Source: Maritimibacter sp. 55A14
GTDB taxonomy: Bacteria > Pseudomonadota > Alphaproteobacteria > Rhodobacterales > Rhodobacteraceae
Assembly (NCBI RefSeq): GCF_003122205.1
Contig: NZ_QEYE01000007.1
Coordinates: 62,001 to 126,000, forward strand
Length of the DNA stretch: 64,000 nucleotides
Direction of reading: 5' to 3'
The number at the start of each line of letters is the position of its first letter. The stretch's first letter is position 1. The position numbers and the translations under genes are program-made. Under the pieces are notes generated by a model. That model saw only the letters and a program-made list of their open reading frames with translations, ran no database searches and was not told the origin of the DNA. Shown here in pieces: positions 50,493 to 64,000 of this stretch.

Positions 50493-52634
50493 ATGCCGGT
50501 GCAAGAGACACGAGGCGATCATTTCCTGCCAGCCTTGCAGGGCCTTCTGCATCGCAGGCGGGCGGCCTGCGCCGCGATGGCCGCGCTGGTCGGTCTTTCG
50601 GTACTGGTGCTGGCCGCGCAACAGATGCTTGGCGGGACCACGCGCGGCCTCGCCTGCTGGTGGCTGGCCGTCGTGGGTCTGGCGTTCATCGTGCTGGGCG
50701 CGCTGCACTGGCGCGGTGCGTTCGCGACGGGGGTTCTGACCGCCGCGCTGATGATCGGCGGCGCGTCGCAGCTCTATGTCACGCAACCGCTCTGGTATCC
50801 GGAGCTTTTTCTGCCGCCGCGCTCGGGAATGGAGACGGTTATGTTCGGCATCGCCGTGGCGCAGGGCGTCCTTGCGGCAGGGGTTCTGGCCGCCAATGTA
50901 GCCTGGTCCGGCCTGCGTCGCTTTCTGTCCACGTTCGGAGTCCTGCCGGTCCTGCTCTTCCTCGTGCTGAGCTGCGCCTTCACGGTGTCCCTGTTGGACT
51001 ATCTGCGGCTCGACAATCTTCTGCGCTTTCGGCTGCAACTGGCCGCCGGCGGCGGGCTTGGCCTGATCAACCTGCTAACCATCGCGGCCATCGCCGTGAC
51101 CGCGCCGGATGGGGTCCGGCTGCCGCGCGGGCGGGGTGCCGTATGGCTGCTGACCGCGTTCTCCTTCGTTGCCACGCTCCTTCTCGCCTGGTTCGCGTTC
51201 GAGAGGGTCATGCACGTGCAGGACGAACTGGCCTATCTTTTCCAGGCGCGCAGCTATGCCGGTGGCGTGCTCGAGCTTCCGGCCCTGCCCGAGGCCGCGC
51301 GGGCGGCTTTCGAGCATTACCTGCTCGACACGCATGAGGGGCGCTGGATTTCGGTCTTCACCCCCGGCTGGCCCGCGGTGCTGGCACTCGGCGTGCTGGC
51401 CGGCGCGCCCTGGCTCGTCAACCCGGTGCTGGGGGCGTTGTCGATCCCGCTCGCGCATGACCTGATGCGGCGCACCGCCGGAGAGCGTACCGCGATGATC
51501 GGCACGCTGCTGCTTGCAACTTCGCCCTGGCTGATCGCGATGTCGGCCACGCTGATGTCGCACAGTCTGGCTCTCTTTCTCATGCTGGGGGCCTGGTGGC
51601 TTCTGTTGCGGTCGGAAGAGACGCAAGGCGTGCGTGCCCATGCCCTGATCCTCGCGGCCGGGCTTGCCCTGGGCTGGCTCTTTCTGACGCGCAACCTCGA
51701 CGGGCTGCTCATCGGCGTTCTGACCGGCGCCTTTTTGCTCTTCCACACGGATCTGCGCAGGCAACTGCCGCGCGCGATCAGCTACAGCCTGGGCTGCATC
51801 GCGACGGGCGGCTTGATCTTTGCCTACAACCTTCATTTTACCGGGGACGCCCTGCGCACCACCTTGTCGGATTACTACATCCGCACCTGGCAGGGCGGGT
51901 CGAACGCCTTCGGCTTCGGCGGCGGCATTGGCGCCCCGGAAGGTTGGGGCCATATGGAGCTTCTGCCGCTCGACCATTCGCCCTGGGAGGGATTCGTCAA
52001 CACGCTCAACAACATCTCGGCGCTGCACACCGATTTCATGGGCTGGGGGATCGGATCGCTGGCGCTGGTCTGGGCGCTCCTGATCTGGGGGCGCAAGACG
52101 CGCGCCGACTGGGCGATGGCGCTGGTCGTCGTCACCATTGCCGTGGCCCACGCCTTCTACTGGTTCGCCGCCAGCTATTATGTCGGCCCGCGCTACTGGT
52201 TCCTGGTGATCGCGCCGCTGGCCTATCTCTCCGCGCGCGGGTTCCAGGTGCTCCGCTCCCGGCTGGACGCGGAAGGTGTTGCCGGCGGCGCGCGCGGGCT
52301 CAACACCGCGCTCCTGGTGCTGTGCCTTTTTTCGGTGACCGTCTTCCTCAGCTACCGGGGCGTGACGCGTTACCACGATCACCGCGCCTATGACGATCAT
52401 TACAGGCATCTCGCCCTGCCACAGACGGAAGGCACCGCGGCCCCGCTGATCCTGTTCAAGGCGACACGGCAGGCATCCTCGGCGCTCTTCTTCAACGATC
52501 CGTGGTTTCCAGCGGACAAGCCTGTCTTCGCCCAGGATCTCGGCCCCGAGAGCAACCGCGCGGTCATCGCCGCCTTCCCCGAACGGCCCGTGCTCTACTA
52601 CGACGAGGCGACCGGGCGCTTCACCCGTCGATGA
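50493..52634 (+). CDS. Large polytopic membrane protein, GT39-like glycosyltransferase candidate
   Basis: 713 residues with about 14 membrane helices and a short soluble C-terminus. An acidic motif after the sixth helix or so (VQDELAYLFQARSYAGG) and FTPGWPAVLALG resemble the D-E region and substrate loop of GT-C transferases. The sugar donor would then be polyprenyl-linked. I cannot assign a substrate. It precedes a small membrane protein by 72 bp. Confidence 0.6.
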   Translation: MPVQETRGDHFLPALQGLLHRRRAACAAMAALVGLSVLVLAAQQMLGGTTRGLACWWLAVVGLAFIVLGALHWRGAFATGVLTAALMIGGASQLYVTQPLWYPELFLPPRSGMETVMFGIAVAQGVLAAGVLAANVAWSGLRRFLSTFGVLPVLLFLVLSCAFTVSLLDYLRLDNLLRFRLQLAAGGGLGLINLLTIAAIAVTAPDGVRLPRGRGAVWLLTAFSFVATLLLAWFAFERVMHVQDELAYLFQARSYAGGVLELPALPEAARAAFEHYLLDTHEGRWISVFTPGWPAVLALGVLAGAPWLVNPVLGALSIPLAHDLMRRTAGERTAMIGTLLLATSPWLIAMSATLMSHSLALFLMLGAWWLLLRSEETQGVRAHALILAAGLALGWLFLTRNLDGLLIGVLTGAFLLFHTDLRRQLPRAISYSLGCIATGGLIFAYNLHFTGDALRTTLSDYYIRTWQGGSNAFGFGGGIGAPEGWGHMELLPLDHSPWEGFVNTLNNISALHTDFMGWGIGSLALVWALLIWGRKTRADWAMALVVVTIAVAHAFYWFAASYYVGPRYWFLVIAPLAYLSARGFQVLRSRLDAEGVAGGARGLNTALLVLCLFSVTVFLSYRGVTRYHDHRAYDDHYRHLALPQTEGTAAPLILFKATRQASSALFFNDPWFPADKPVFAQDLGPESNRAVIAAFPERPVLYYDEATGRFTRR

Positions 52635-52706: not shown

Positions 52707-53078
52707 ATGACCTGGGTTCTGACAATCGTGATAACCGTCCTGCTGGTCGAACTGCTGCTGCGGCTGCCGCTGCTGGCGGAGGCGCGGGCGGTGGCCGCGA
52801 CCGCGCGGCGCGCGGCGCATGTCGTGGGCGCGCGCGGGATATCCGATCACTGGAAGGAAAAGGCCGTGCCCGCCTATGCCGGGCGTATGCTGCGTGCCAG
52901 CCTGATGCTTCTGGTCTGGCTTGGCCTGATCGGGCTGGCGGGCACTGTCCTGACACTCCTCGCCGACAGGCTGGCGCCGGGCACGTCCGGTACGCTGCTG
53001 AGCGGCGGAGGGCTGGCGCTCTCGCTCATCGCCGCTACCGCCCATGTCCTGCTACGGCAGCGCCTTGTCCGCGGCTGA
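52707..53078 (+). CDS. Unrecognised small membrane protein
   Basis: 123 residues with three likely helices (VLTIVITVLLVELLLRL near the N-terminus; LMLLVWLGLIGLAGTVLTLL; GLALSLIAATAHVLL). A charged, mainly cytoplasmic segment ISDHWKEKAVPAYAGRM lies between the first two. I do not recognise the family. It sits between a GT-C candidate and a rhomboid protease, all in the same direction. Confidence 0.6.
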   Translation: MTWVLTIVITVLLVELLLRLPLLAEARAVAATARRAAHVVGARGISDHWKEKAVPAYAGRMLRASLMLLVWLGLIGLAGTVLTLLADRLAPGTSGTLLSGGGLALSLIAATAHVLLRQRLVRG

Positions 53079-53138: not shown

Positions 53139-53819
53139 ATGAGTACGCAGAAGGATAACGACGCGCCCCGGTCGCGCTGGTCGGCCTGGCTGGCGCATCC
53201 CGCGCCGGTGGTGGCCTTCTTCGTGATCCTGCCCTGCCTGGTCGAACTGACGCTCATCGCGGCCGATCACGGGCTTATCGGCTCGCGGCTCTGGCGCAGC
53301 CTGGCCTATCAGAACGGCGCCTTCTGGCAGGGGCTGCTGGGCAACTGGCAGCCGAACTATGCCGCGCAGCCGGTGCTGATGTTCTTCACCTATCCGTTCC
53401 TGCATGCCGGACTGGTGCATCTGGGCGGCAACATGCTGGTGCTGCTGATCCTGGGCCGGGTCGTGGTCCGGCAGGTCGGGCAGGCGCGCTTTGTGCTGCT
53501 CTATGTCCTCTCGGGCATCGGCGGCGGGCTGGGGCTGGCGCTGCTCAGCGACAGCGTGCATCCGATGGTCGGTGCCTCGGGCGCGCTTTTCGGGCTGGTC
53601 GGCGCCTGGAAGCACCGGGACTGGAGCACCCGGACCCGCCGCGGGCTGACCCGCTGGCCGGTCATTTTCGACCTGATCGGGCTGGTGATCCTGAACGCCG
53701 TCTTCTGGGTGCTGGAGGACGGATTGCTCGCCTGGGAGACGCATCTGGGCGGCTTCGTCACGGGATGGTTGTTCAGCCTGGGGTGGCAAGGAATCGCCCG
53801 ATCAGTAGATTCGCCATGA
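53139..53819 (+). CDS. Rhomboid family intramembrane serine protease
   Basis: 226 residues with about six helices. VGASGALFG contains the catalytic serine S147 (G-x-S-G), and ETHLGGFVTGW the catalytic histidine H202. FLHAGLVHLGGNMLVL supplies the conserved H-x2-N-type region. It cleaves membrane proteins within the bilayer. ATG 53139 follows AAGG/GGGG sites and starts just before the first helix. Confidence 0.9.
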   Translation: MSTQKDNDAPRSRWSAWLAHPAPVVAFFVILPCLVELTLIAADHGLIGSRLWRSLAYQNGAFWQGLLGNWQPNYAAQPVLMFFTYPFLHAGLVHLGGNMLVLLILGRVVVRQVGQARFVLLYVLSGIGGGLGLALLSDSVHPMVGASGALFGLVGAWKHRDWSTRTRRGLTRWPVIFDLIGLVILNAVFWVLEDGLLAWETHLGGFVTGWLFSLGWQGIARSVDSP

Positions 53820-54046: not shown

Positions 54047-54565
54047 ATGAAACTAATGAAACTGGCTGGTGTGGCTCTCGCAGCATCGCTGGCATTTGCT
54101 CCGGTCGCCGCGAAAGCCGCCGTCGTGAACATCACCGACGACATCACGGATGCGGTCGCGACCAATGTCTCGATCACCAATCAGAGCGACATTTTCATCT
54201 ACGATGCGTCGCTTCAGAATGTGGTCTCCGGTCAACAGGCGATTTTCACGTTCTCCAACGACACTGGCAGTAACCTGACCCTCGGCGCGGGTCTGCCTGC
54301 CACGGTGAACCCGACCGGGTCCTTCCCGGGCGGCACCCTGTCGTGGAGCGGCGGGACGAGTGTCGCGCTGGAAGGTGGTCAGACCAACACGGTGCTGACA
54401 GCCGGATCGACGGGCACGCTGACCGTCTTCTTCGGTGATCAGGTCGGAAGCTTGGCCAATGTTGATGTGATCGTGTCGCAGGTTCCGTTGCCCGCGGGTG
54501 GCCTCCTCCTGCTGACCGCGCTCGGCGGCATCGGGCTGGCACGGCGCCGCCGCAAGGCCGCGTAA
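54047..54565 (+). CDS. VPLPA-CTERM exported protein (exosortase substrate)
   Basis: 172 residues. A signal peptide (LAGVALAASLAFAPVAAKA) is followed by a Thr/Ser/Asn-rich, low-lysine body without cysteines. The C-terminal sorting tail has VPLPA (146-150), a helix (GGLLLLTALGGIGLA) and an R166-R169 basic cluster. Such tails are recognised by exosortases (XrtD type for VPLPA) and link the protein to EPS production. An AGAGGGG ribosome site precedes ATG 54047, and a strong terminator follows, so it is monocistronic. Confidence 0.9.
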   Translation: MKLMKLAGVALAASLAFAPVAAKAAVVNITDDITDAVATNVSITNQSDIFIYDASLQNVVSGQQAIFTFSNDTGSNLTLGAGLPATVNPTGSFPGGTLSWSGGTSVALEGGQTNTVLTAGSTGTLTVFFGDQVGSLANVDVIVSQVPLPAGGLLLLTALGGIGLARRRRKAA

Positions 54566-54590
54566 CGCCATACCGGCAATCAAGATCTGG

Positions 54591-54622
54591 AAAGGGGCCG
54601 TTCGCGGCCCCTTTCTTTGTTG
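54591..54622 (+). terminator. Rho-independent terminator after the VPLPA-CTERM gene
   Basis: A 10-bp perfect stem AAAGGGGCCG/CGGCCCCTTT with the stable tetraloop TTCG (54591-54614), followed by CTTTGTTG. The A-run on the other side makes it potentially bidirectional, which suits the convergent GT2 gene ending at 54641. Confidence 0.85.
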
Positions 54623-54640
54623 TGGGCAACGCCCGCCCCT

Positions 54641-55525
54641 TCAGATCGGCAGGCCGAGAGACTGGCGCAGCATCCAGACCATCCGCAGGCATCTGAGCCG
54701 CACCAGCGTCGCGACCGCCCGCAGATATTCGCCCGGCGTGTCCAGCTTGCCGCTGAGCAGCACCTTGGGCGTATGCGCCACGGCGCTGGCCGGCATGGCC
54801 AGCCCGCGCAATCCCCAGCGCAGCCGCCGCCCCGGCGATGTCCCGTTGAGTTGGAAGCCCTCGCGCGTCATGCGCTGCCATTTCACCCGCAGCGCGGGCC
54901 AGTCCTGGCGCGAGGGATGGGTGACGCGCAGCCGGTCCTCGTAGACCAGGCTGTAACCGCGGGCCACCGCGCGCATGGTCCATTCGCGATCTTCCGAGAC
55001 GCCGTTGACGAAGCCGCCGATCGCGTCGAAGACATCGCGGCGCGTCACCAGATTGCCAGCGCCGGAAAACCCCTGCACCTCGATATAGCGGCGGAAATTG
55101 AAGGCGAAGATGGCCTCGAACGCTTCGGCGCCGGACCGCGGTGGCGGGGTCTCGTCGAATACGTCCACCCGGCCCCCGACCAGGTCGGCGCGGTCCGCCA
55201 CCTCCCGCGCAACGCTCAGCCAATCATGGTCCGGGACGCAATCCGCGTCGATGAAACAGAGCAGCGGCGCCGTCGTCTCCCGCACGCCGCGATTGCGCGC
55301 GGCGGCGGCGCCCTTTTCCGCCTCCACCAGGAAGCGGACGGCGGGGAAGCGCGCGCGCAGATCGTCGAGCGGTTGGGTGGAGCCGTTGTCCACGACCACG
55401 ATCTCGGCGTCTGTCGTGTCGTTGCGCAGCAGCGCGTCGAGGCAGCGGCCAAGGCGGGTGACGTCGTTGTAATGCGGGATGATGACCGCGGCGTCGGGCC
55501 GGCCCTCAGTAATAGCCGTATTCAT
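54641..55525 (-). CDS. Glycosyltransferase family 2
   Basis: 294 residues of GT-A fold. AAVIIPHYNDVTRLGRCLDA is at the start, IVVVDNGST follows, CFIDADCVP provides the D-x-D metal site, and SEDREWTMRAV the acidic acceptor motif. A hydrophobic C-terminal stretch is likely peripheral. It overlaps the end of the tyrosine-kinase gene by 20 bp and is the last gene of the minus-strand EPS unit. Confidence 0.88.
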   Translation of the reverse strand: MNTAITEGRPDAAVIIPHYNDVTRLGRCLDALLRNDTTDAEIVVVDNGSTQPLDDLRARFPAVRFLVEAEKGAAAARNRGVRETTAPLLCFIDADCVPDHDWLSVAREVADRADLVGGRVDVFDETPPPRSGAEAFEAIFAFNFRRYIEVQGFSGAGNLVTRRDVFDAIGGFVNGVSEDREWTMRAVARGYSLVYEDRLRVTHPSRQDWPALRVKWQRMTREGFQLNGTSPGRRLRWGLRGLAMPASAVAHTPKVLLSGKLDTPGEYLRAVATLVRLRCLRMVWMLRQSLGLPI

Positions 55526-56384
55526 AGCCGTGGGCCCCGCTCGTGTACCGGCACTTGTTCAACACGATGCCCATCACGTTCGTAAGCTCGGCAAGCTGGC
55601 GTTCCGCCACGTCGATCTCGTCCATCGTGGTCTGTTCCGCGGCGGCGATCAGCAGCGCGCAGTCCACGTTCTTGAGGAACCCGTGGCTGTCGTCGCTGGC
55701 CATCAGCGGCGGCGTATCGAAGAACACGAAATCCGGCTCGTAGGTATCCTCGATCTCCGACAGGACCTCGTCCGCCTGTCGGCTTTGCAGAATCTCCGAC
55801 GGATTGCTGACCTCACTGCAGTTCAGCCCGAAAATCACGTTATGGCCATGCCGCAAAGCATGCGCCTGGAACGAGACCCGCCGCGTGAGCACGTCGCCCA
55901 TGCTGTTCTGACAGCGCTGTGCGAGGATGCGCGCCAGCCCCATGCGGCGCAGGTCGAAATCCAGCACCATGGTGCGCTTGTCCTCCTGGCGTCCGAAGCT
56001 GAAGCCCAGATTGGCGGCCGTCGTGCTCTTGCCGCAGGCGCTGTGTGGTGAGACCAGCGCGATGCGCCGCCAGCCGCGTACCCTGGCCTGCTGCGCGATC
56101 TTGGTGCGCAGCATGTCATAGGGTGCGGCTTCCGGGCCACCCTGCAAGGACACCAGACGGTTCTGGATCATTTCCTTTTCGTTGATATGCAGCGGCGCCA
56201 GCACCTTCCAGACCTCAGGCATTTCCACTGGCGTGGCCTGTTTCTCGCGGGGCGGCTCCGGCTTGGCGGGCTCCACCGCCGACGGCTTCGAGCCGTCGCC
56301 GAAGGGCCGCGTTTCGGGTCCGGGCGCCCCTGCCTGTTCGCGTTTGGCGCGGGCCTTTTCCAGTGCCATCTGAAGCCTGTCCAT
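55506..56384 (-). CDS. CpsD/ExoP-type tyrosine kinase / EPS-associated P-loop ATPase
   Basis: 292 residues. A Pro-rich N-terminus is followed by the Walker A region SPHSACGKSTTAANL (K119), Walker A' MVLDFDLRR, FVFFDTPPLM and a tyrosine-containing tail YEYGYY, the usual autophosphorylation cluster of BY-kinases. It works with the Wzz protein encoded just upstream to control chain length and export. GGGAGG precedes ATG 56384. Confidence 0.88.
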   Translation of the reverse strand: MDRLQMALEKARAKREQAGAPGPETRPFGDGSKPSAVEPAKPEPPREKQATPVEMPEVWKVLAPLHINEKEMIQNRLVSLQGGPEAAPYDMLRTKIAQQARVRGWRRIALVSPHSACGKSTTAANLGFSFGRQEDKRTMVLDFDLRRMGLARILAQRCQNSMGDVLTRRVSFQAHALRHGHNVIFGLNCSEVSNPSEILQSRQADEVLSEIEDTYEPDFVFFDTPPLMASDDSHGFLKNVDCALLIAAAEQTTMDEIDVAERQLAELTNVMGIVLNKCRYTSGAHGYEYGYY

Positions 56385-56412
56385 TATGACACCTCCCTCA
56401 TGAGATCCTGCA

Positions 56413-57954
56413 TCACCAGCGCATGCCCAACTTGTCCATGACCCGATCCGCGATCAGATCAAGCGGTTGATAATAGGTATGAACGGCCCACACCGCAGCC
56501 GGTATGCCCACCAGGATCACGGCAACCAGAAGCAGCCGCCGGATGCGGCGCACCATCACCTCGCTTCGGGTCTGGACATAGGGGATCGTGGCGATCGGCC
56601 AGACCTCCAGCTTGTTGATCAGATCCTCGGGCCGGCGCGGCGTGCGGTTGAGGAATTCCAGCAGCAGCACCAGCGCCAGACCCAGCAGAATTCCGAAGGC
56701 GGTGCCGCCGCCGGCGATCAGCATCCGGTTGGGCTTGGTCGGTGCGCTGGGCACGGCAGGCTGTTCGACGACGGAAATGCGCTGCCCGCGCGACATGACC
56801 TCGATCCGCTCCCCGGTGGAGGCCGCCGAGAGCCGCGCGACGGCGGTGTTGTACTGCGCCTGGATGTTGTCGTAGTCGCGTTGCAGATCGTCCAGCGTCA
56901 CGGCGTTCGCCGGCGTCCGCTGGATCGAATCGGTCAGCTTCGCGATCCGCTCTTCCAGCGTCTTCTTCTGGTCCTTGAGCGTGATGAGCTGAGCGTCGAG
57001 CTGCGCAAGCTGGATGTCGAGCGCGGAATTGCCTGTCTGCGTGTTCGACTGCGTCGGCTGCGCGGCCTGCTGGGCGGCCACGGATTCCTCCAGGCTGGCG
57101 ATCCGCGCCCTGAGCAGCTTGATGCGCGGGTTGGTCTCCGAATAAACCACCAGGTCGTTGTTGAGCTGCGCGCGAAGCTGCTGGAGCTGTTGCTCCGCCG
57201 GGCTGAGATTCTGGTTGGCCGTGCCGACGACCTGGCCGGTGGAATTGTAGACCTCCATCAGCTTCTCGCGCTGGCTCTCCAGCGAGAAAATCTGCCGGTC
57301 GATCTGTTCCAGATTGGTCTGGAGCGCCGCCTGCTGCGTTTCGCGGAACGGCAGGCTCGCCGGCAGCGCGTCGGAGTTGTTTTGCTTGAAGGTCAGGATC
57401 GCGGCGCTGCGCTTTTCCAGCGCGTCGCTCAGCCGATCGACCTCCTGCTCGAAAAATTCCAGCGTCTGGATGGCGCGGCCCTTGCGGTATTCCACGTCCT
57501 CCTGCTGGATCTCGGTGAGATACTCGTTGAGCACCCCGGCCGCGTTCTGCGCGGAGATCGCCTCGAAGGAGATCTGCATCAGCGTCGCCTGGCCGCGGCC
57601 CGCGCTGGTGCGGATCTGGGTGCGTGCGCGCATCCCGTCCACGATCTGATCGGGGTTCATGCGGTCCTGGTCGGGCATGACCTTCAGACGGTTCGCAATG
57701 TCCAGCAGGTTGGGCCGCGTCAGCAGGCGCTGCTCGACGATCTGCAACTGTTCCAGCGCCGGGGTCGCGACCGTGCTGGGCGCCAGGTTGGTCGGGATCT
57801 GCGGCGATTCCACGATCAGCCGCATCTGCGAGACATAGGCTGGCGGCAGGGTCTTCGCGACGATCACCGACACGGCGGAGACCACCGTGGCGACGGCCAG
57901 GAAATAGGGCAGCCGCCGGATGAAAATCGACAGGTAAAACCGGATGTTGTCCAT
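56413..57954 (-). CDS. Wzz/GNVR-type polysaccharide chain-length determinant (EPS system)
   Basis: 513 residues. Two terminal membrane helices (FLAVATVVSAVSVIVAKTL and LIAGGGTAFGILLGLALVLL), a large coiled-coil periplasmic domain (~150-360) rich in Q/E/L, and an extra C-terminal helix (LLLVAVILVGIPAAVWAV). This matches the chain-length determinant of exosortase-linked EPS clusters. Its ATG directly abuts the stop of the ATPase gene. The kinase follows after 28 bp. Confidence 0.88.
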   Translation of the reverse strand: MDNIRFYLSIFIRRLPYFLAVATVVSAVSVIVAKTLPPAYVSQMRLIVESPQIPTNLAPSTVATPALEQLQIVEQRLLTRPNLLDIANRLKVMPDQDRMNPDQIVDGMRARTQIRTSAGRGQATLMQISFEAISAQNAAGVLNEYLTEIQQEDVEYRKGRAIQTLEFFEQEVDRLSDALEKRSAAILTFKQNNSDALPASLPFRETQQAALQTNLEQIDRQIFSLESQREKLMEVYNSTGQVVGTANQNLSPAEQQLQQLRAQLNNDLVVYSETNPRIKLLRARIASLEESVAAQQAAQPTQSNTQTGNSALDIQLAQLDAQLITLKDQKKTLEERIAKLTDSIQRTPANAVTLDDLQRDYDNIQAQYNTAVARLSAASTGERIEVMSRGQRISVVEQPAVPSAPTKPNRMLIAGGGTAFGILLGLALVLLLEFLNRTPRRPEDLINKLEVWPIATIPYVQTRSEVMVRRIRRLLLVAVILVGIPAAVWAVHTYYQPLDLIADRVMDKLGMRW

Positions 57955-58809
57955 CTACTCGGTAGTCTCCTGTTCAAGCGATTGGCCGCCGAAGAAAACG
58001 CCGTCGTCTATGACCGACTGGACGACATATTCGGTGACGACCTTCGTTTCGGCGCTCCAGGCATAGAGCATTGAAAAATCGCACAACTGGTTTGTCAGCC
58101 GCGGCACGCCCCTGGTGGTCTTGTGGATGAGCGTGCAGGCATCGGCGTCGAATTCGTCCCCCGTGCCGCCGGCTTTCTGGAGCCGGTGCCGGATATAGCC
58201 GCGCAGCGTTTCCAAGTTCATCCGCTCCAGATGGAAGCTGGCCGCGACGCGCTGTGTCAACTGGCGAAGCTCGGGCTTGAGGATCAGATCCCGCAACTCC
58301 GGCTGGCCGACAAGGATGAGTTGCAGCACTTCATCCTTGTTGGCATTGATATTTGTCAGCATCCGGAGCTCTTCAAGCCCTTCCAGCGACAGGTTCTGTG
58401 CCTCGTCGAAGATCAGCACGACGCGGCGGCCCTCGGCGTATTCGCTGACCAGGTAATCCTGCAATGTCTGGAACATCTGCACATAGCTCGCGCCCCGCTC
58501 TATCGGCACGGAGAGCGCGTTGAGCACCCATTGCAGCAATTCCCCGCGCCCGCCCTGGGCGTTGGAGACCAGCCCGACGGTGACCGACGGTTCCATCTGG
58601 CGCAGCAGGAATTGCAGCAGCGTCGTCTTTCCTGCCCCGATCTCGCCGGTCAGGATGGTGATCGGCGCCCGCGACAGAATGCCGAATTCCAGGATCGAAT
58701 AGCCGCGCTTGTGCTGCGCCGACCAGAACAGGAAGTCAGGGTCAGGCAGCAGAGTGAAGGGCCTCTGGTCGAGACCGAAGAAATCCACGTAGAACCCTGT
58801 CAAGGCCAT
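57955..58809 (-). CDS. ExeA/GspA-like AAA ATPase associated with exosortase EPS clusters
   Basis: 284 residues. It begins FYVDFFGLDQRPFTLLPDPD, the usual GspA-like N-terminus, with P-loop LTGEIGAGKTTLL (K61), Walker B VLIFDEAQNL and a sensor region LILVGQPELRDL. Proteins of this kind are a fixed part of PEP-CTERM-type EPS loci. ATG 58809 is preferred; GTG 58830 would add 7 residues. It leads the minus-strand unit ATPase-Wzz-kinase-GT2. Confidence 0.88.
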   Translation of the reverse strand: MALTGFYVDFFGLDQRPFTLLPDPDFLFWSAQHKRGYSILEFGILSRAPITILTGEIGAGKTTLLQFLLRQMEPSVTVGLVSNAQGGRGELLQWVLNALSVPIERGASYVQMFQTLQDYLVSEYAEGRRVVLIFDEAQNLSLEGLEELRMLTNINANKDEVLQLILVGQPELRDLILKPELRQLTQRVAASFHLERMNLETLRGYIRHRLQKAGGTGDEFDADACTLIHKTTRGVPRLTNQLCDFSMLYAWSAETKVVTEYVVQSVIDDGVFFGGQSLEQETTE

Positions 58810-59463
58810 ATCCCGCAATGCGCCTTCCACCTTTTAAAACCCACCCCGCAAACCATGAGGCCCCTCGCACGCACGGGTCCGGCCCGCACGTCCCCCAATA
58901 CTAACCGGCGCGCTGAAACAGCCCGCCAAGGTTGCGCCGGAATCAGGTGATCTTGCAAGCGCAGCATCCCTTTCGTCCCATAATATGCAGCGATTCTAGG
59001 AGACTTCGAGACAATTCAAAGGCAGAGTCGAGATTGTACCGATGTCTCCAACGAATCGCCCGGCCGCCGCCCCCTCTGCGCCGCCCGGTTGTGACACGGT
59101 ATCAGCTTTCAAATTTCCGAAAACTTGCGACTCACGGACGCATCACAGTATCATCACGGAACAGTGAGCCGGTTAACATGGGTACTGTTGCCGTCTTCGG
59201 GACAATCTTTGGCGAATGCGCCAGTCACATTCTGCTGAATCTTCCCGACTTCCGTCCCAACTTTGCCACATTCCTGGGCGCAAAGGTCGATTTTTATTGT
59301 GTATTTTCAAGAAACAGTGTTTGTTTCCAATATGTTACACGAATTTCACGATTGTGGCGAAATCCAAATAGCGTTTGAGTTTCATCCGTTCTTTGTTAAT
59401 GATTGTTAGAGGGTAGAGCGGTGGTCTTCAGCGTCCGGGACAGGGACGGATCACATAAGTGTT
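58810..59463. other. 654-bp divergent intergenic region of the EPS locus
   Basis: AT-richer than the genes and carrying both divergent promoters. I find no credible gene; the open frame at 58932-59378 has no domain or start signal. TTTGTTAATG at 59392-59401, 63 bp before the priming-transferase ATG, also occurs at 53932-53941 before the VPLPA-CTERM gene and may be a shared control element. GGAACAGTGA with GGTTAACAT lies near 59158-59179. Confidence 0.4.
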
Positions 59464-60186
59464 ATGAGTATGCTGCTGTCGAGGGGAACCACAGTGACGT
59501 TGCACCTTAAGAATATTGCCAACGAAGATGTTGGCGTACCCTCTGCCTTTGGTTTCACCGCCGCGACCAGGCGGTCCGCCACATTCTACGAACAATATGG
59601 CAAGCGTCTCTTCGATCTGTGCTTCGTGCTGCTCTCCGCGCCGATCGTCCTTCCGCTGACGCTGATCCTGGCGCTCGCTGTCCTGCGCGACGGCGCGGCG
59701 CCGTTCTACTGGCAGAAGCGACTGGGCCGGAACGGCAAGACCTTCAAGCTGCTCAAGCTGCGCACGATGGTCCCGGATGCCGACAAGATCTTCCAGGAAT
59801 ACCTGGACGCCAATCCCGAAGCCCGGCGCGAATGGGACCTGACGCAGAAGCTCAAGAACGACCCGCGCGTGACGCTGGTCGGCCGGCTGCTGCGCAAGAC
59901 CTCCATGGACGAGCTGCCGCAATTCTGGAATGTCCTGCGCGGCGAGATGTCCCTTGTCGGGCCGCGCCCGATGATGGTGGACCAGGCGCCGCTCTATCCC
60001 GGCAAGGCTTATTACAAGATCCGCCCCGGCATCACCGGACTGTGGCAGGTCAAGGACCGCAACAACACGTCCTTCATGGCGCGCGCCGGTTACGACACGC
60101 AGTATTATCGCGCCATTTCCCTCATTTCCGATTGCGCTATCCTGCTGAGAACGATTCTCGTGGTGGTTCGCGGCACGGGATATTGA
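59464..60186 (+). CDS. Priming sugar-phosphate transferase (ExoY/WbaP C-terminal type)
   Basis: 240 residues. One membrane helix follows KRLFDLCFVLLSAP. The catalytic region contains FKLLKLRTMVPDADK, DELPQFWNVLRGEMSLVGPR and YYKIRPGITGLWQV. It transfers a hexose-1-phosphate from a UDP-sugar to undecaprenyl phosphate, the first step of EPS repeat-unit assembly. The short ExoY length lacks the WbaP N-terminal helices. It is the first gene of the plus-strand EPS unit. Confidence 0.92.
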   Translation: MSMLLSRGTTVTLHLKNIANEDVGVPSAFGFTAATRRSATFYEQYGKRLFDLCFVLLSAPIVLPLTLILALAVLRDGAAPFYWQKRLGRNGKTFKLLKLRTMVPDADKIFQEYLDANPEARREWDLTQKLKNDPRVTLVGRLLRKTSMDELPQFWNVLRGEMSLVGPRPMMVDQAPLYPGKAYYKIRPGITGLWQVKDRNNTSFMARAGYDTQYYRAISLISDCAILLRTILVVVRGTGY

Positions 60187-60245
60187 GCCCAACCGCCGGC
60201 AGCACCCGCGCGGCAGCGGCTCGCGGTAAATCGGACTGGTGGAAC

Positions 60246-62732
60246 ATGACCCGGATGACAAAACTGGCGGCGACGCTCAAGCGGCTTCTTCTGGTTACGG
60301 CTCTGATGCTGGGTGTGGGACTGCTCAGTGCCTGTGAATCGGCGGAAGAGCGCGCCGAGAAACATTTCCAGACCGGCATGGCCCTGCTGGAAGAGGGCGA
60401 TGTCGAGCGCGCGCTCGTCGAATTCCGCAATGTCTTCAAGCTGAACGGCCAGCACAAGGAGGCCCGCCTGGCCTATGCCCGCGTCGAACGCGAACGCGGC
60501 AATGTGCAGGAAGCCTACAGCCAGTATCTGCGCCTGGTCGAACAGTATCCCGACAACCTGGAGGGTCGCCGCGCCCTGGCTCAGATGGCCCTGCGCACCG
60601 GCAACTGGGAAGAGGTGGAACGCCACGGAAAGGCCGCCGCCGAGATCGACCCGGACGACACGCTGGTGCAGTCGATCAACAACACCGCCGCCTATTTCCG
60701 CGCCGCGCGCGACCGCGACGCCAAGGGCCGCGCCGCCGGCGCCGAGAAGGCGCTGGTCTTGCTGGAAGACAATCCGGGCTTGTACAGCGCCTGGCAGGTG
60801 CGCATCGACGACGCGATCCGCGCCGAGGACTGGACCCGCGCGCTGACGGATATCGACGCCGCCTTCGCCAATGTCGAGGGCGGGGAGCGCGAAAGCCTCT
60901 ATTCCCTGCGGCTGGGGGTCCTGCAGGAACTGGGCGACGTCGCGGCGATCGAGGCGCAGCTCGAGGAAATGCTCGTGGAGTTTCCCGACGATCCGGGGGT
61001 CAAGCAACTCCTGGTGCGGGTCTATGTCTCGCAGGACAAGATCGACGATGCCGAGGCATTCCTGCGCAGCGAGGCCGACCCGGAGGCCGAGGACACCGCC
61101 CCGGTCGAGCAATTGCTGAGCTTTCTGGAAACGTTCCGCGGGCGCGAGGCCGCGATTGGCGAGCTGGACATGATCATCGCAGGCGGCGGACCGAACGAGC
61201 CGCTTTTCCGGGCGTTGCGCGCCAAGCTGAATTTCAATGCCGGCAACGAGCAGGACGCCATCGCCGAGATGGAGGCGATCCTGGAGGGCGCCGAGCGCAC
61301 GCAAACCACCCGCCAGATCGAGGTGGACCTGGCGCGGATGCTCTTTCGCAGCGGCAACGCCGTGGGCGCGCGTGCGCTGGTGGAACAGGTCCTGGCGGAG
61401 GATCGCAGCAATGTCGGTGCGATCAAGCTCAAGGCGCATTGGCTGATCGAGGACGACAAGACGGGCGACGCGATCATCCTGCTGCGCACCGGGCTGGGGC
61501 AGGCGCCGCGCGACCCCGAGCTTTTGACGCTGATGGCGCGCGCGCATGAACGCGACGGCAACCGCCGCCTGATGGGCGAGATGCTGGCGCTGGCTGTCGA
61601 AGCGTCCCGCAACGCGCCCGACACCTCGCTGCGCTACGCCGCGCATCTGGTGCAGGAGGAAAGCTATCTCACCGCCGAGGGGGTGCTGATCGACGCACTG
61701 CGGCTGGCGCCCGCGAACACTGACCTGCTGGCCGCACTCGGCAATGTCTATATCGAGATGCAGGACTGGGGCCGGATCGATTCGGTTGTCTCGTCGCTCG
61801 AAGGCATCGGCTCAGCCGAGGCCAATGTGATCTCGAAGGAACTGACGGCGCGCCGCCTGGCCGCACAGAACCGGACGGAGGAGCTGACCGATTTCCTCGA
61901 CGAGCTGTCGCGCGACCCGGAACTGGGCTCCGGCGCCGGGATCGCGCTGATCCGTACGCTCCTGGCGCGGGGCGATGTGGAAGGTGCGCTGACCCGCGTC
62001 GAGTCGCTGCTCGCGGACGATCCGGGCAATGCCGGGCTGCGCTTCGTGCGGGCCTTCGCGCTCTCGGTCGATGGCCAGACCGAGGCCGCCGACGAGGTCT
62101 ACCAAAACCTGAACGACGAGTTCCCGGAGAACGAACAGTTCTGGATGGCGCGCTACCGCCTCCACACCGCCGAGGGCAACCCGGACCGGGCGCAGAAGGT
62201 GCTTCAGGACGGCCTCACCCGCCTGCCCAAAAGCCTGAACCTGCAATGGGCGCTGGCGGGCGAATTGCAGAAGGTGGGCGACATCGAGGGTGCCATCGCC
62301 GTTTATGAACAGCTCTATGAGCAGAACAGCAATTCCGCGGTGATCGCCAACAACCTGGCCAGCCTGCTCTCGACCCATCGCGACGAGCCGGAGGCGCTGG
62401 AACGCGCCTATCTCATCGCCAAGCGCCTGCGCGGCTCGGACGTGCCGCAATTCCAGGACACGTTCGGGTGGATCGCGCACCGGATGGGCGATAACGACGC
62501 CGCGCTCAACCACCTGCTGCCGGCCAGCGAGGGCATGCCCGGCGACCCGGCGGTGCGCTACCACCTGGCGCGGACCTACGCCGCGCTGGAACAGGACGCC
62601 GCGGCGCTGGAAACCTATCGAAAGGTGATTGAGTTGGTCGATCCGGCCAACCCGCCCGAATTCATGGCCGAGGTCGAGGCGGAGGTCGCCCGGCTCAGCG
62701 CACCCGCCGAGGGCGCCACGGCCACCGAATAA
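60246..62732 (+). CDS. TPR-repeat lipoprotein of the exosortase/EPS system (PrsT-like)
   Basis: 828 residues. A lipoprotein signal ends at LLSAC (C30 modified), and then about 20 tetratricopeptide-type repeats run to the C-terminus. A large TPR lipoprotein beside the priming transferase and Wza is typical of PEP-CTERM-type EPS loci (PrsT). It likely scaffolds periplasmic export or polymerisation. ATG 60246 follows GGTGG. The composition is acidic and host-like. Confidence 0.85.
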   Translation: MTRMTKLAATLKRLLLVTALMLGVGLLSACESAEERAEKHFQTGMALLEEGDVERALVEFRNVFKLNGQHKEARLAYARVERERGNVQEAYSQYLRLVEQYPDNLEGRRALAQMALRTGNWEEVERHGKAAAEIDPDDTLVQSINNTAAYFRAARDRDAKGRAAGAEKALVLLEDNPGLYSAWQVRIDDAIRAEDWTRALTDIDAAFANVEGGERESLYSLRLGVLQELGDVAAIEAQLEEMLVEFPDDPGVKQLLVRVYVSQDKIDDAEAFLRSEADPEAEDTAPVEQLLSFLETFRGREAAIGELDMIIAGGGPNEPLFRALRAKLNFNAGNEQDAIAEMEAILEGAERTQTTRQIEVDLARMLFRSGNAVGARALVEQVLAEDRSNVGAIKLKAHWLIEDDKTGDAIILLRTGLGQAPRDPELLTLMARAHERDGNRRLMGEMLALAVEASRNAPDTSLRYAAHLVQEESYLTAEGVLIDALRLAPANTDLLAALGNVYIEMQDWGRIDSVVSSLEGIGSAEANVISKELTARRLAAQNRTEELTDFLDELSRDPELGSGAGIALIRTLLARGDVEGALTRVESLLADDPGNAGLRFVRAFALSVDGQTEAADEVYQNLNDEFPENEQFWMARYRLHTAEGNPDRAQKVLQDGLTRLPKSLNLQWALAGELQKVGDIEGAIAVYEQLYEQNSNSAVIANNLASLLSTHRDEPEALERAYLIAKRLRGSDVPQFQDTFGWIAHRMGDNDAALNHLLPASEGMPGDPAVRYHLARTYAALEQDAAALETYRKVIELVDPANPPEFMAEVEAEVARLSAPAEGATATE

Positions 62733-62850
62733 GGCCCGGAACCTCCATCCGGGTGCCGAAAATACGCTGCAAATCTGCCGCAGTGATGATGTTTTGTGTC
62801 GGCGACGGATTGGTGCAGAATGGGAAACAGGGTACGAAGGGAGTAACGAA

Positions 62851-63489
62851 ATGGAAAAACTGCAAGCGCGAGCAATGATCAGGTTTCTCTTGAGCTTCCT
62901 TATGGCTTCGGTGCTGGCGACCAGCGCCATGGCCCAGAGTGGCTACCAGATCAAACCGGGGGACGCTCTTCAGATCGAAGTGCTGGAAGACCCCAACCTC
63001 AACCGCAGGGTTCTGATCCTGCCCGATGGCAGTTTCAGCTTTCCGCTGGTGGGCACGGTGCAGGCGGGCGGCCGTTCGGTCGATGCCGTCCGTGCGGCGC
63101 TGACCTCGGGGTTGGCGCCCAATTTCGCGACCGCGCCGACGGTCTTCGTCTCGGTCGCGGCCTTGGCGCCGCCGCCGCTGACCGCGTTTGGCACTGTCGC
63201 CACGGGACCGACCATCGACGCCTATATCATGGGTGAGGTCGGGGCGCCGGGCAAATTGCTGGTAACGCCCGGCACGACAATCCTTCAGATCCTGGCCGAG
63301 GCCGGCGGTCTGACACAATTCGCAGCCTCCAAGCGCATCGAATTGCGCAGGGCTGACCCGGATACGGGTGTGATGAAAAAATATCTTTTCAATTATCGGG
63401 GCACGGGACGGGGCAAGAGCATCAAAGGAAGTACGGAACTTCAGCCCGGAGATGTCGTCGTCGTACCGCAGCGCCGTTTGTTCGAATAA
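62851..63489 (+). CDS. Wza-like polysaccharide export protein
   Basis: 212 residues. The signal peptide ends at TSAMA (about residue 28). A Poly_export domain (YQIKPGDALQIEVLEDPNL, GSFSFPLVGTVQAGG) is followed by an SLBB-type domain (YIMGEVGAPGKLLVTPG, LAEAGGLTQFA) and ends LQPGDVVVVPQRRLFE. No lipobox cysteine is visible, unlike classical Wza. It forms or feeds the outer-membrane EPS channel. AAGGGAG precedes ATG 62851. Confidence 0.9.
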   Translation: MEKLQARAMIRFLLSFLMASVLATSAMAQSGYQIKPGDALQIEVLEDPNLNRRVLILPDGSFSFPLVGTVQAGGRSVDAVRAALTSGLAPNFATAPTVFVSVAALAPPPLTAFGTVATGPTIDAYIMGEVGAPGKLLVTPGTTILQILAEAGGLTQFAASKRIELRRADPDTGVMKKYLFNYRGTGRGKSIKGSTELQPGDVVVVPQRRLFE

Positions 63490-63498
63490 GGAGAGCAA

Positions 63499-64000
63499 GT
63501 GAAAAAACGGCAAGCAAGGCTGTCCTTTATCGTAGCAGGGGGGGCGGCCTGCGTCACGGCACTCTCGCCCGCGATTGGCCAGCAACTGACGACCGGCGGC
63601 ACCACAGCCGCCGGAACCGTCACTCCGGCGCAGCAGCAGCAACAGCAGCAGCAGACGACCACCGGCGTTCCGCAGGGCACTGGCACTGGCCTGACGGTCA
63701 CGCTGGGGCTGGATTCGTCGCTGCGCTATGACGACAATCTGGGGCTCGACGATCCGTCCGACGGCGACACGAAGCGTTTCGAGAACCGGCTGTCGCTCAA
63801 TGTCAGCAGCCTGAAGGCCAATGAACAGCTCCAGTTCGATCTGAGCGGCATTGCCCGCATCGTGGACAAACCCAATACCGGCACCGATGGCGGCGTTTTC
63901 GAAGATCCGTCCGTGGGGCTTTCCTATGCCCGCCAGGGCGCCAACAGTACCTTCCAGGGCAGCGCCAACTACCGCGAGGTCGATCTCGACTTCTTCCGGC
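63499..64000 (+). CDS. Outer-membrane beta-barrel protein of the EPS locus (3' truncated by window)
   Basis: The frame starts at GTG 63499 with AAGGAG upstream, 9 bp after the export-protein gene, and is open to the window end (167 codons). A signal peptide (AGGAACVTALSPAIG) is followed by a Thr/Gly-rich spacer with eight consecutive glutamines. Alternating strands typical of an outer-membrane barrel (LTVTLGLDSSLRYDDNLGL) come next. It resembles the outer-membrane protein that accompanies PEP-CTERM-type EPS clusters. Confidence 0.75.
   Translation, partial: MKKRQARLSFIVAGGAACVTALSPAIGQQLTTGGTTAAGTVTPAQQQQQQQQTTTGVPQGTGTGLTVTLGLDSSLRYDDNLGLDDPSDGDTKRFENRLSLNVSSLKANEQLQFDLSGIARIVDKPNTGTDGGVFEDPSVGLSYARQGANSTFQGSANYREVDLDFFR

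What the first reader, a model, noticed from the sequence alone, without database searches (positions are those of the whole stretch)
54047..64000. Exosortase-type EPS locus with its VPLPA-CTERM substrate; exosortase predicted just outside
A VPLPA-CTERM protein lies beside GT2, tyrosine kinase, Wzz, ExeA-like ATPase, priming transferase, TPR lipoprotein, Wza-like protein and an outer-membrane protein. These genes accompany exosortases elsewhere, so an xrtD-type gene is expected to the right of 64000.
Basis: partly seen in the sequence, partly recalled or inferred. Interest (0 to 1): 0.5.

Follow-up and report, generated by a model that had tools for sequence, protein, structure and literature searches.

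The report
XrtD exopolysaccharide locus with linked rhomboid
This is a standard bacterial gene cluster that makes a surface polysaccharide and sorts tagged proteins to the cell surface; the predicted sorting enzyme is indeed just past the window's edge, and the cluster also carries a second membrane protease that accompanies it in many related bacteria.

Summary
A VPLPA-CTERM protein (54047-54565) sits beside GT2, tyrosine kinase, Wzz, ExeA-like ATPase, priming transferase, PrsT-like lipoprotein, Wza-like and outer-membrane genes. The only exosortase found in the genome, XrtD (TIGR04152, 699 bits, cut-off 400), starts 1,338 bp right of the window's end. Two further VPLPA tails lie elsewhere in the genome, one just below the model cut-off. 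This is the known XrtD/VPLPA-CTERM system, in a Rhodobacteraceae-type bacterium.

Its subfamily (my threshold, 120 bits) is in 60 of 77 genera with the EPS ATPase and 10 of 169 without. Of 51 copies on a contig with the ATPase, 46 lie within 20 kb. It often directly follows xrtD, or sits where xrtD would be. Its presence tracks the EPS module, not XrtD itself. Separately, 24 of 85 VPLPA-bearing genera show no recognisable exosortase.

That the rhomboid processes VPLPA tails is a testable inference only. My literature searches (open-licence papers, listings and passages) showed no description of the link.

The parts
53139..53819 (+). rhomboid intramembrane serine protease of the EPS-locus subfamily (ORF open from 53079; likely start 53139); Ser in GASG, His in ETHLGG
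   Evidence: PF01694 104 bits at this place; best NCBIfam match rhombosortase TIGR03902, 46 bits, below cut-off 84
54047..54565 (+). VPLPA-CTERM protein, 172 aa: N-terminal signal peptide (by eye), C-terminal VPLPA motif, hydrophobic stretch, Arg/Lys tail (putative XrtD substrate)
54641..55525 (-). family 2 glycosyltransferase
55506..56384 (-). CpsD/CapB-type tyrosine autokinase (TIGR03018-like)
56413..57954 (-). Wzz-type polysaccharide chain length determinant (TIGR03007-like)
57955..58830 (-). ExeA/XrtA-system-like AAA ATPase (TIGR03015-like)
59464..60186 (+). undecaprenyl-phosphate sugar phosphotransferase (priming transferase)
60246..62732 (+). PrsT-like TPR lipoprotein (raw ORF over-extended to 59619)
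62851..63489 (+). Wza-like polysaccharide export protein (Poly_export, SLBB)
63499..64000 (+). putative outer-membrane protein, 498 aa, no family match, continues to 64995 outside the window; xrtD follows at 65338-66945 and a right-handed beta-helix protein at 67034-68191

Best explanation
This is the XrtD/VPLPA-CTERM sorting and exopolysaccharide locus of a Rhodobacteraceae-type bacterium. A priming transferase and glycosyltransferases start a lipid-linked glycan; Wzz, kinase and ATPase control chain length; the Wza-like protein, the putative outer-membrane protein and the PrsT-like lipoprotein export it. The VPLPA-CTERM protein enters by Sec and is held in the inner membrane by its C-terminal helix. 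XrtD (conserved Cys200, Arg245, His266) is taken to cut at or near the VPLPA motif and pass the protein to an unknown acceptor for display with the polysaccharide. The rhomboid gene beside the substrate belongs to the module. I infer, not show, that it is a second membrane protease of the system, which cuts VPLPA tails or another membrane protein of the export machine. Shown: gene content, XrtD identity, conserved residues, linkage of the rhomboid to the module. Inferred: all functions, cleavage, acceptor, display, rhomboid substrate.
For: XrtD is the only exosortase found in the genome and scores 699 bits against a cut-off of 400; Cys200, Arg245 and His266 are invariant in 18 of 18 aligned XrtD proteins (their role is recalled). 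VPLPA tails. Most of the same genes surround xrtD in related loci; 33 of 80 loci have xrtD at more than 60% identity within the stretch fetched. In 246 genomes, XrtD and VPLPA-CTERM co-occur 56/4/29/157 (both / XrtD only / VPLPA only / neither), XrtD and the ATPase 57/3/20/166, rhomboid and ATPase 60/17/10/159 (order here: both / ATPase only / rhomboid only / neither), p=6e-31. Of 51 rhomboid copies on a contig with the ATPase, 46 lie within 20 kb. xrtD and rhomboid are adjacent and co-directional (gap -30 to 200 bp) in 19 of 33 xrtD loci. Of 14 plasmid records with this rhomboid, 13 also carry XrtD; of 26 with XrtD, 13 carry the rhomboid (several are near-duplicate strains).
Against: No activity, cleavage site or surface location is shown; no PDB chain matches XrtD by sequence. 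The rhomboid was not found in 14 of 60 XrtD genomes. Given the ATPase, it is no commoner with XrtD (45 of 57) than without (15 of 20, p=0.76). The 120-bit threshold for the subfamily is mine, and scores near it run without a wide gap (144, 132, 126, then 114). The genome searches scored only part of the first-look candidates (at most 12, 32 and 9 per genome), so absences may be misses. The 80 loci were chosen through the ATPase, which biases gene content toward this module. I did not search for wzx/wzy genes; none appeared among the proteins scanned.
Confidence: 0.9

Rival explanations
1. The EPS-locus rhomboid is itself a VPLPA-CTERM processing enzyme, working with XrtD where both exist and in its place where no exosortase exists.
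For: VPLPA tails are in 14 of 20 ATPase-positive, XrtD-less genomes against 15 of 166 with neither (p=4e-9); 15 of those 20 have the rhomboid (two of the 20, G049 and G128, have another exosortase). 24 of 85 VPLPA genomes have no exosortase by PF09721 or over the TIGR04178 cut-off; 11 of these have the rhomboid. Single-contig genome G236 has priming, PrsT, Wza and outer-membrane genes ending in the rhomboid, five VPLPA matches and no exosortase found. The best NCBIfam match of the window protein is rhombosortase, which 34 of 34 aligned members match at E<=0.001; own paralogues score lower, 24-26 bits (one of them scanned as a 141-residue stretch only). The rhomboid is directly beside a VPLPA gene in the window and in Haematobacter pOT1-6.
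Against: 13 exosortase-free VPLPA genomes lack this rhomboid, and their other rhomboids number about as many as in controls (29 in 13 versus 24 in 13). Within XrtD-less, ATPase-positive genomes, rhomboid and VPLPA are not associated (11/3/4/2, p=0.61), nor in the ATPase-negative ones (1/14/8/143, p=0.58). The window protein is below the rhombosortase cut-off. The fit of tails to a rhomboid cleavage consensus (77 of 92) rests on a recalled motif and on a regular expression that already fixes part of it.
Confidence: 0.25
2. The rhomboid trims a membrane component of the EPS export machine (for example a Wzz-type protein) and has nothing to do with VPLPA tails.
For: Rhomboid presence follows the EPS ATPase whether or not XrtD is there; in several loci without xrtD in the stretch it sits directly after the outer-membrane gene; four ATPase-positive, XrtD-less genera (G032, G159, G176, G195) have it without detected VPLPA tails.
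Against: No candidate substrate in the locus was identified; I did not search for one systematically.
Confidence: 0.35
3. The VPLPA gene is only a chance neighbour of an ordinary EPS cluster without exosortase function.
For: The genome has few VPLPA tails (two over the cut-off).
Against: XrtD is in the same cluster; XrtD, ATPase and VPLPA tails co-occur strongly.
Confidence: 0.02

Closest known systems
XrtD / VPLPA-CTERM system (TIGR04152, TIGR03370)
   Same: XrtD over the curated cut-off with fused EpsI-like domain, VPLPA-CTERM substrate, EPS neighbourhood
   Different: A rhomboid gene beside the substrate, in no description that I found; here xrtD is at the far end and followed by a beta-helix gene
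XrtA / PEP-CTERM EPS loci (EpsH system; PMC1569441, passages only)
   Same: Relatives of the proteins that NCBIfam names as XrtA-associated: chain length determinant, tyrosine autokinase, ATPase, PrsT, export protein; PrsT and EpsI are named in the passages read
   Different: The accessory proteins score below the XrtA-model cut-offs; VPLPA rather than PEP motif; upstream of the three VPLPA genes the best match to a recalled sigma-54 consensus is 7 of 10 positions, with no shuffled control
Rhombosortase / GlyGly-CTERM (TIGR03902; PMC3237569 and PMC6219818, passages only)
   Same: Rhomboid protease linked to a tripartite C-terminal tag; closest curated model to the window's rhomboid (46 bits versus 19 for GlpG)
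   Different: Below the cut-off of 84 bits; the neighbouring tag is VPLPA-CTERM; an exosortase is in the same locus

Membership tests
XrtD exosortase | TIGR04152 score over the curated cut-off (400 bits) | tested here: met
   699.4 bits
XrtD exosortase | Conserved Cys, Arg and His of exosortases and C-terminal EpsI-like domain | tested here: met
   Cys200, Arg245, His266 invariant in 18 proteins (role of residues recalled); TIGR02914 126 bits, cut-off 42.8
XrtD exosortase | Cleaves VPLPA-CTERM tails | not testable with these tools
   needs experiment
VPLPA-CTERM substrate | TIGR03370 over cut-off at the C-terminus, plus N-terminal signal peptide | tested here: met
   36 bits, residues 146-170 of 172; signal peptide judged by eye, not by a predictor
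XrtA / PEP-CTERM system | XrtA (TIGR03109) and accessory models over cut-off | tested here: not met
   150 of 208 bits for XrtA; accessory proteins below cut-offs
Rhombosortase | TIGR03902 over cut-off (84 bits) | tested here: not met
   46 bits
Rhombosortase | GlyGly-CTERM (TIGR03501) substrate in the genome | not tested
Active rhomboid protease | Ser-His dyad in a GlpG-like fold | tested here: met
   Ser of GxSG and His invariant in 34 of 34; model pLDDT 92.9 matches GlpG structures, query TM-scores about 0.5-0.6; activity itself not tested

The most novel reading that the evidence does not exclude
A distinct rhomboid protease subfamily is a standard part of the Rhodobacteraceae VPLPA/EPS module and acts as a second, and in some exosortase-free genomes the only, C-terminal sorting enzyme for VPLPA-CTERM proteins, so that one sorting tag is read by two unrelated intramembrane protease families.
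Probability: 0.22. Interest if true: 0.75.

Novelty: new variant of a known kind. Interest (0 to 1): 0.45.

Why it matters
The chemistry of exosortase products is, to my knowledge, still undefined. A genome with about three VPLPA tails, one exosortase and one linked rhomboid is a small system in which to find the cleavage site and acceptor. If the rhomboid shares the tag, it would help to explain how a good part of the VPLPA-CTERM genomes manage without any recognisable exosortase, and would tie surface polysaccharide to two protease families at once.

Tried and rejected
Sigma-54 sites upstream of the three VPLPA genes: best 7 of 10 positions, not convincing (no control). Extra rhomboids as the explanation for exosortase-free VPLPA genomes without the EPS rhomboid: 29 in 13 versus 24 in 13 controls, not supported. 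XrtD-rhomboid association independent of the EPS module: not supported once the ATPase is taken into account. Other exosortases in the 29 VPLPA genomes without XrtD: five have one by PF09721; the other 24 have none by PF09721 and only sub-threshold TIGR04178 matches in five of them. Ten genomes have the rhomboid without the ATPase: in eight (G014, G042, G046, G123, G152, G183, G187, G232) I found no export genes within about 10 kb of it, G236 has it at the end of an export gene set, and G161 beside xrtD; five copies in ATPase-positive genomes (G085, G109, G092, G076, G242) also lie outside the export gene set. A tree of 72 sequences puts the EPS rhomboids on one side of a split (support 0.86), with one long-branch intruder from G004 (L178). 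The second structure job was not used.

Literature searches were judged by titles and abstract starts; they cover open-licence PMC papers only. Passages were seen in PMC3237569, PMC1569441, PMC11980579 and PMC6219818.

Full report
Observation. The VPLPA-CTERM protein at 54047-54565 has its motif, hydrophobic stretch and basic tail at residues 146-170 of 172 (TIGR03370, 36 bits, cut-off 25.35). On the minus strand follow GT2, tyrosine kinase, Wzz and an ExeA-like ATPase. On the plus strand follow a priming transferase, a PrsT-like TPR lipoprotein, a Wza-like protein and a protein without family match (read as outer-membrane) that runs out of the window. The accessory proteins resemble the XrtA-system models but fall below those models' cut-offs.

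The prediction. The window is G000:C67:62001-126000 of a 3.8-Mb, 74-contig genome. A search with the general exosortase model finds one exosortase. Its gene starts 1,338 bp to the right of the window (window coordinates 65338-66945), after the putative outer-membrane gene. It scores 699 bits against TIGR04152, the VPLPA-specific exosortase XrtD (cut-off 400), and carries the EpsI-like domain. Eighteen XrtD proteins from the genome, related loci and plasmids keep Cys200, Arg245 and His266. The genome has two VPLPA tails over the cut-off, one just below it (24.8 bits) and three weaker matches. A right-handed beta-helix protein follows xrtD, and beyond it are cobalamin-type genes (my reading of the translations).

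Relatives. Of 221 confirmed ATPase relatives in named genomes the best 80 were returned; many share the gene order. Thirty-three of the 80 have XrtD at more than 60% identity in the stretch held (some stretches are short). In a panel of 246 genomes of the same family, drawn evenly with a different genus label each, XrtD is in 60, the ATPase in 77 (E<=1e-40; only 2 over the curated cut-off) and VPLPA tails in 85 (counted). XrtD and VPLPA: 56 both, 4 XrtD only, 29 VPLPA only, 157 neither. XrtD and ATPase: 57, 3, 20, 166. These searches scored only part of the first-look candidates per genome, so absences may include misses.

A rhomboid in the module. The gene at about 53139-53819, 227 bp upstream of the VPLPA gene, encodes a rhomboid protease. 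In 34 aligned relatives the Ser of GxSG and the second-motif His are invariant, and the model (pLDDT 92.9) matches GlpG structures. A profile of the 34 finds 71 copies over 120 bits in 70 of 246 genomes and many other rhomboids at 114 bits or less. The bulk of the first group lies at 180-323 bits; four copies at 126-153 bits (G242, G076, G152, G092) are doubtful members. The subfamily is in 60 of 77 ATPase-positive and 10 of 169 ATPase-negative genomes (p=6e-31). Of 51 copies on a contig with the ATPase, 46 lie within 20 kb. Of the lower-scoring rhomboids, three share a contig with the ATPase, all more than 200 kb away (two, and one, G224, that I left out of that script). The rhomboid is found in 44 of the 80 loci. 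In 19 of 33 xrtD loci it directly follows xrtD on the same strand with gaps of -30 to 200 bp; in ten xrtD loci it was not found. In others it follows the outer-membrane gene with no xrtD in the stretch, or sits beyond the kinase/GT2 end as in the window. Copies from these positions fall on one side of a tree split (support 0.86) with one long-branch exception. On plasmids, 13 of 14 records with this rhomboid also carry XrtD, and 13 of 26 XrtD records carry the rhomboid, among 72,556 records; several are near-duplicate strains. In Haematobacter massiliensis pOT1-6 the rhomboid is again next to a VPLPA-CTERM gene. In Roseobacter denitrificans pTB2 and Jannaschia CCS1 p1 it follows the gene after the Wza-like one.

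What it may do. The window's rhomboid matches the rhombosortase model TIGR03902 best, 46 bits against a cut-off of 84; 34 of 34 members match that model at E<=0.001, 13 also a GlpG model. The two other rhomboids of the same genome score 26 and 24 bits, the second scanned only as its matched stretch. Rhombosortase processes GlyGly-CTERM tags in Vibrio cholerae (PMC6219818, passages). A VPLPA tail has the topology of such a substrate (inference). Against a direct partnership with XrtD: among ATPase-positive genomes the rhomboid is about as common without XrtD (15 of 20) as with it (45 of 57, p=0.76). So it belongs to the EPS module. Among XrtD-less genomes, rhomboid and VPLPA tails are associated overall (12/17/12/145, p=2e-5), but not once the ATPase is held fixed (p=0.61 and 0.58).

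Tails without an exosortase. Of 29 VPLPA-bearing genomes without XrtD, 24 have no PF09721 match (E<=1e-3) and no TIGR04178 match over the cut-off. Twelve of these searched again carry 4 to 22 matches each, and the 30 tails inspected, drawn from the best matches, are typical. Eleven of the 24 have the EPS rhomboid and 12 the EPS ATPase. Among XrtD-less genomes, tails are in 14 of 20 with the ATPase and 15 of 166 without (p=4e-9). G236, a single contig, has the priming, PrsT, Wza, outer-membrane and rhomboid genes in a row, five VPLPA matches and no exosortase found. Thirteen of the 24 lack the EPS rhomboid and have no clear excess of other rhomboids. The enzyme for these remains unknown, and the rhomboid reading is a hypothesis only.

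Verdict. The finding is real, its prediction is correct, and the system is a known one. The added value is the linked rhomboid and the exosortase-free VPLPA genomes. I saw neither in the listings of my literature searches or in the passages read; the library holds open-licence papers only.

Noticed in passing
G012, G021, G028, G050, G056, G071, G072, G080, G097, G115, G120, G121, G135, G140, G141, G150, G160, G191, G205, G206, G209, G213, G224, G236: Genomes with VPLPA-CTERM tails (up to 22 matches in the twelve searched again) but no exosortase recognised by PF09721 or over the TIGR04178 cut-off; the processing enzyme is unknown.
   Followed up: partly
window 50493-52634 and 52707-53078: A PMT_2-type membrane protein and a small unknown membrane protein lie directly upstream of the rhomboid; neither had a tblastn hit (E<=1e-4) in the 80 related loci.
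   Followed up: no
L008:4035-5192: Right-handed beta-helix protein directly after xrtD; might modify the polysaccharide.
   Followed up: no
NZ_CP061940.1: A 24-kb record labelled Bacillus velezensis plasmid holds an XrtD-like stretch (56% identity, 3 pieces); possibly contamination or a broken gene.
   Followed up: no
NC_008387.1 (pTB2): A plasmid with dTDP-rhamnose genes carries the EPS module, rhomboid, XrtD and two VPLPA-CTERM genes; it may be one of the 'biofilm plasmids' with a rhamnose operon (recalled; the paper was not held).
   Followed up: partly
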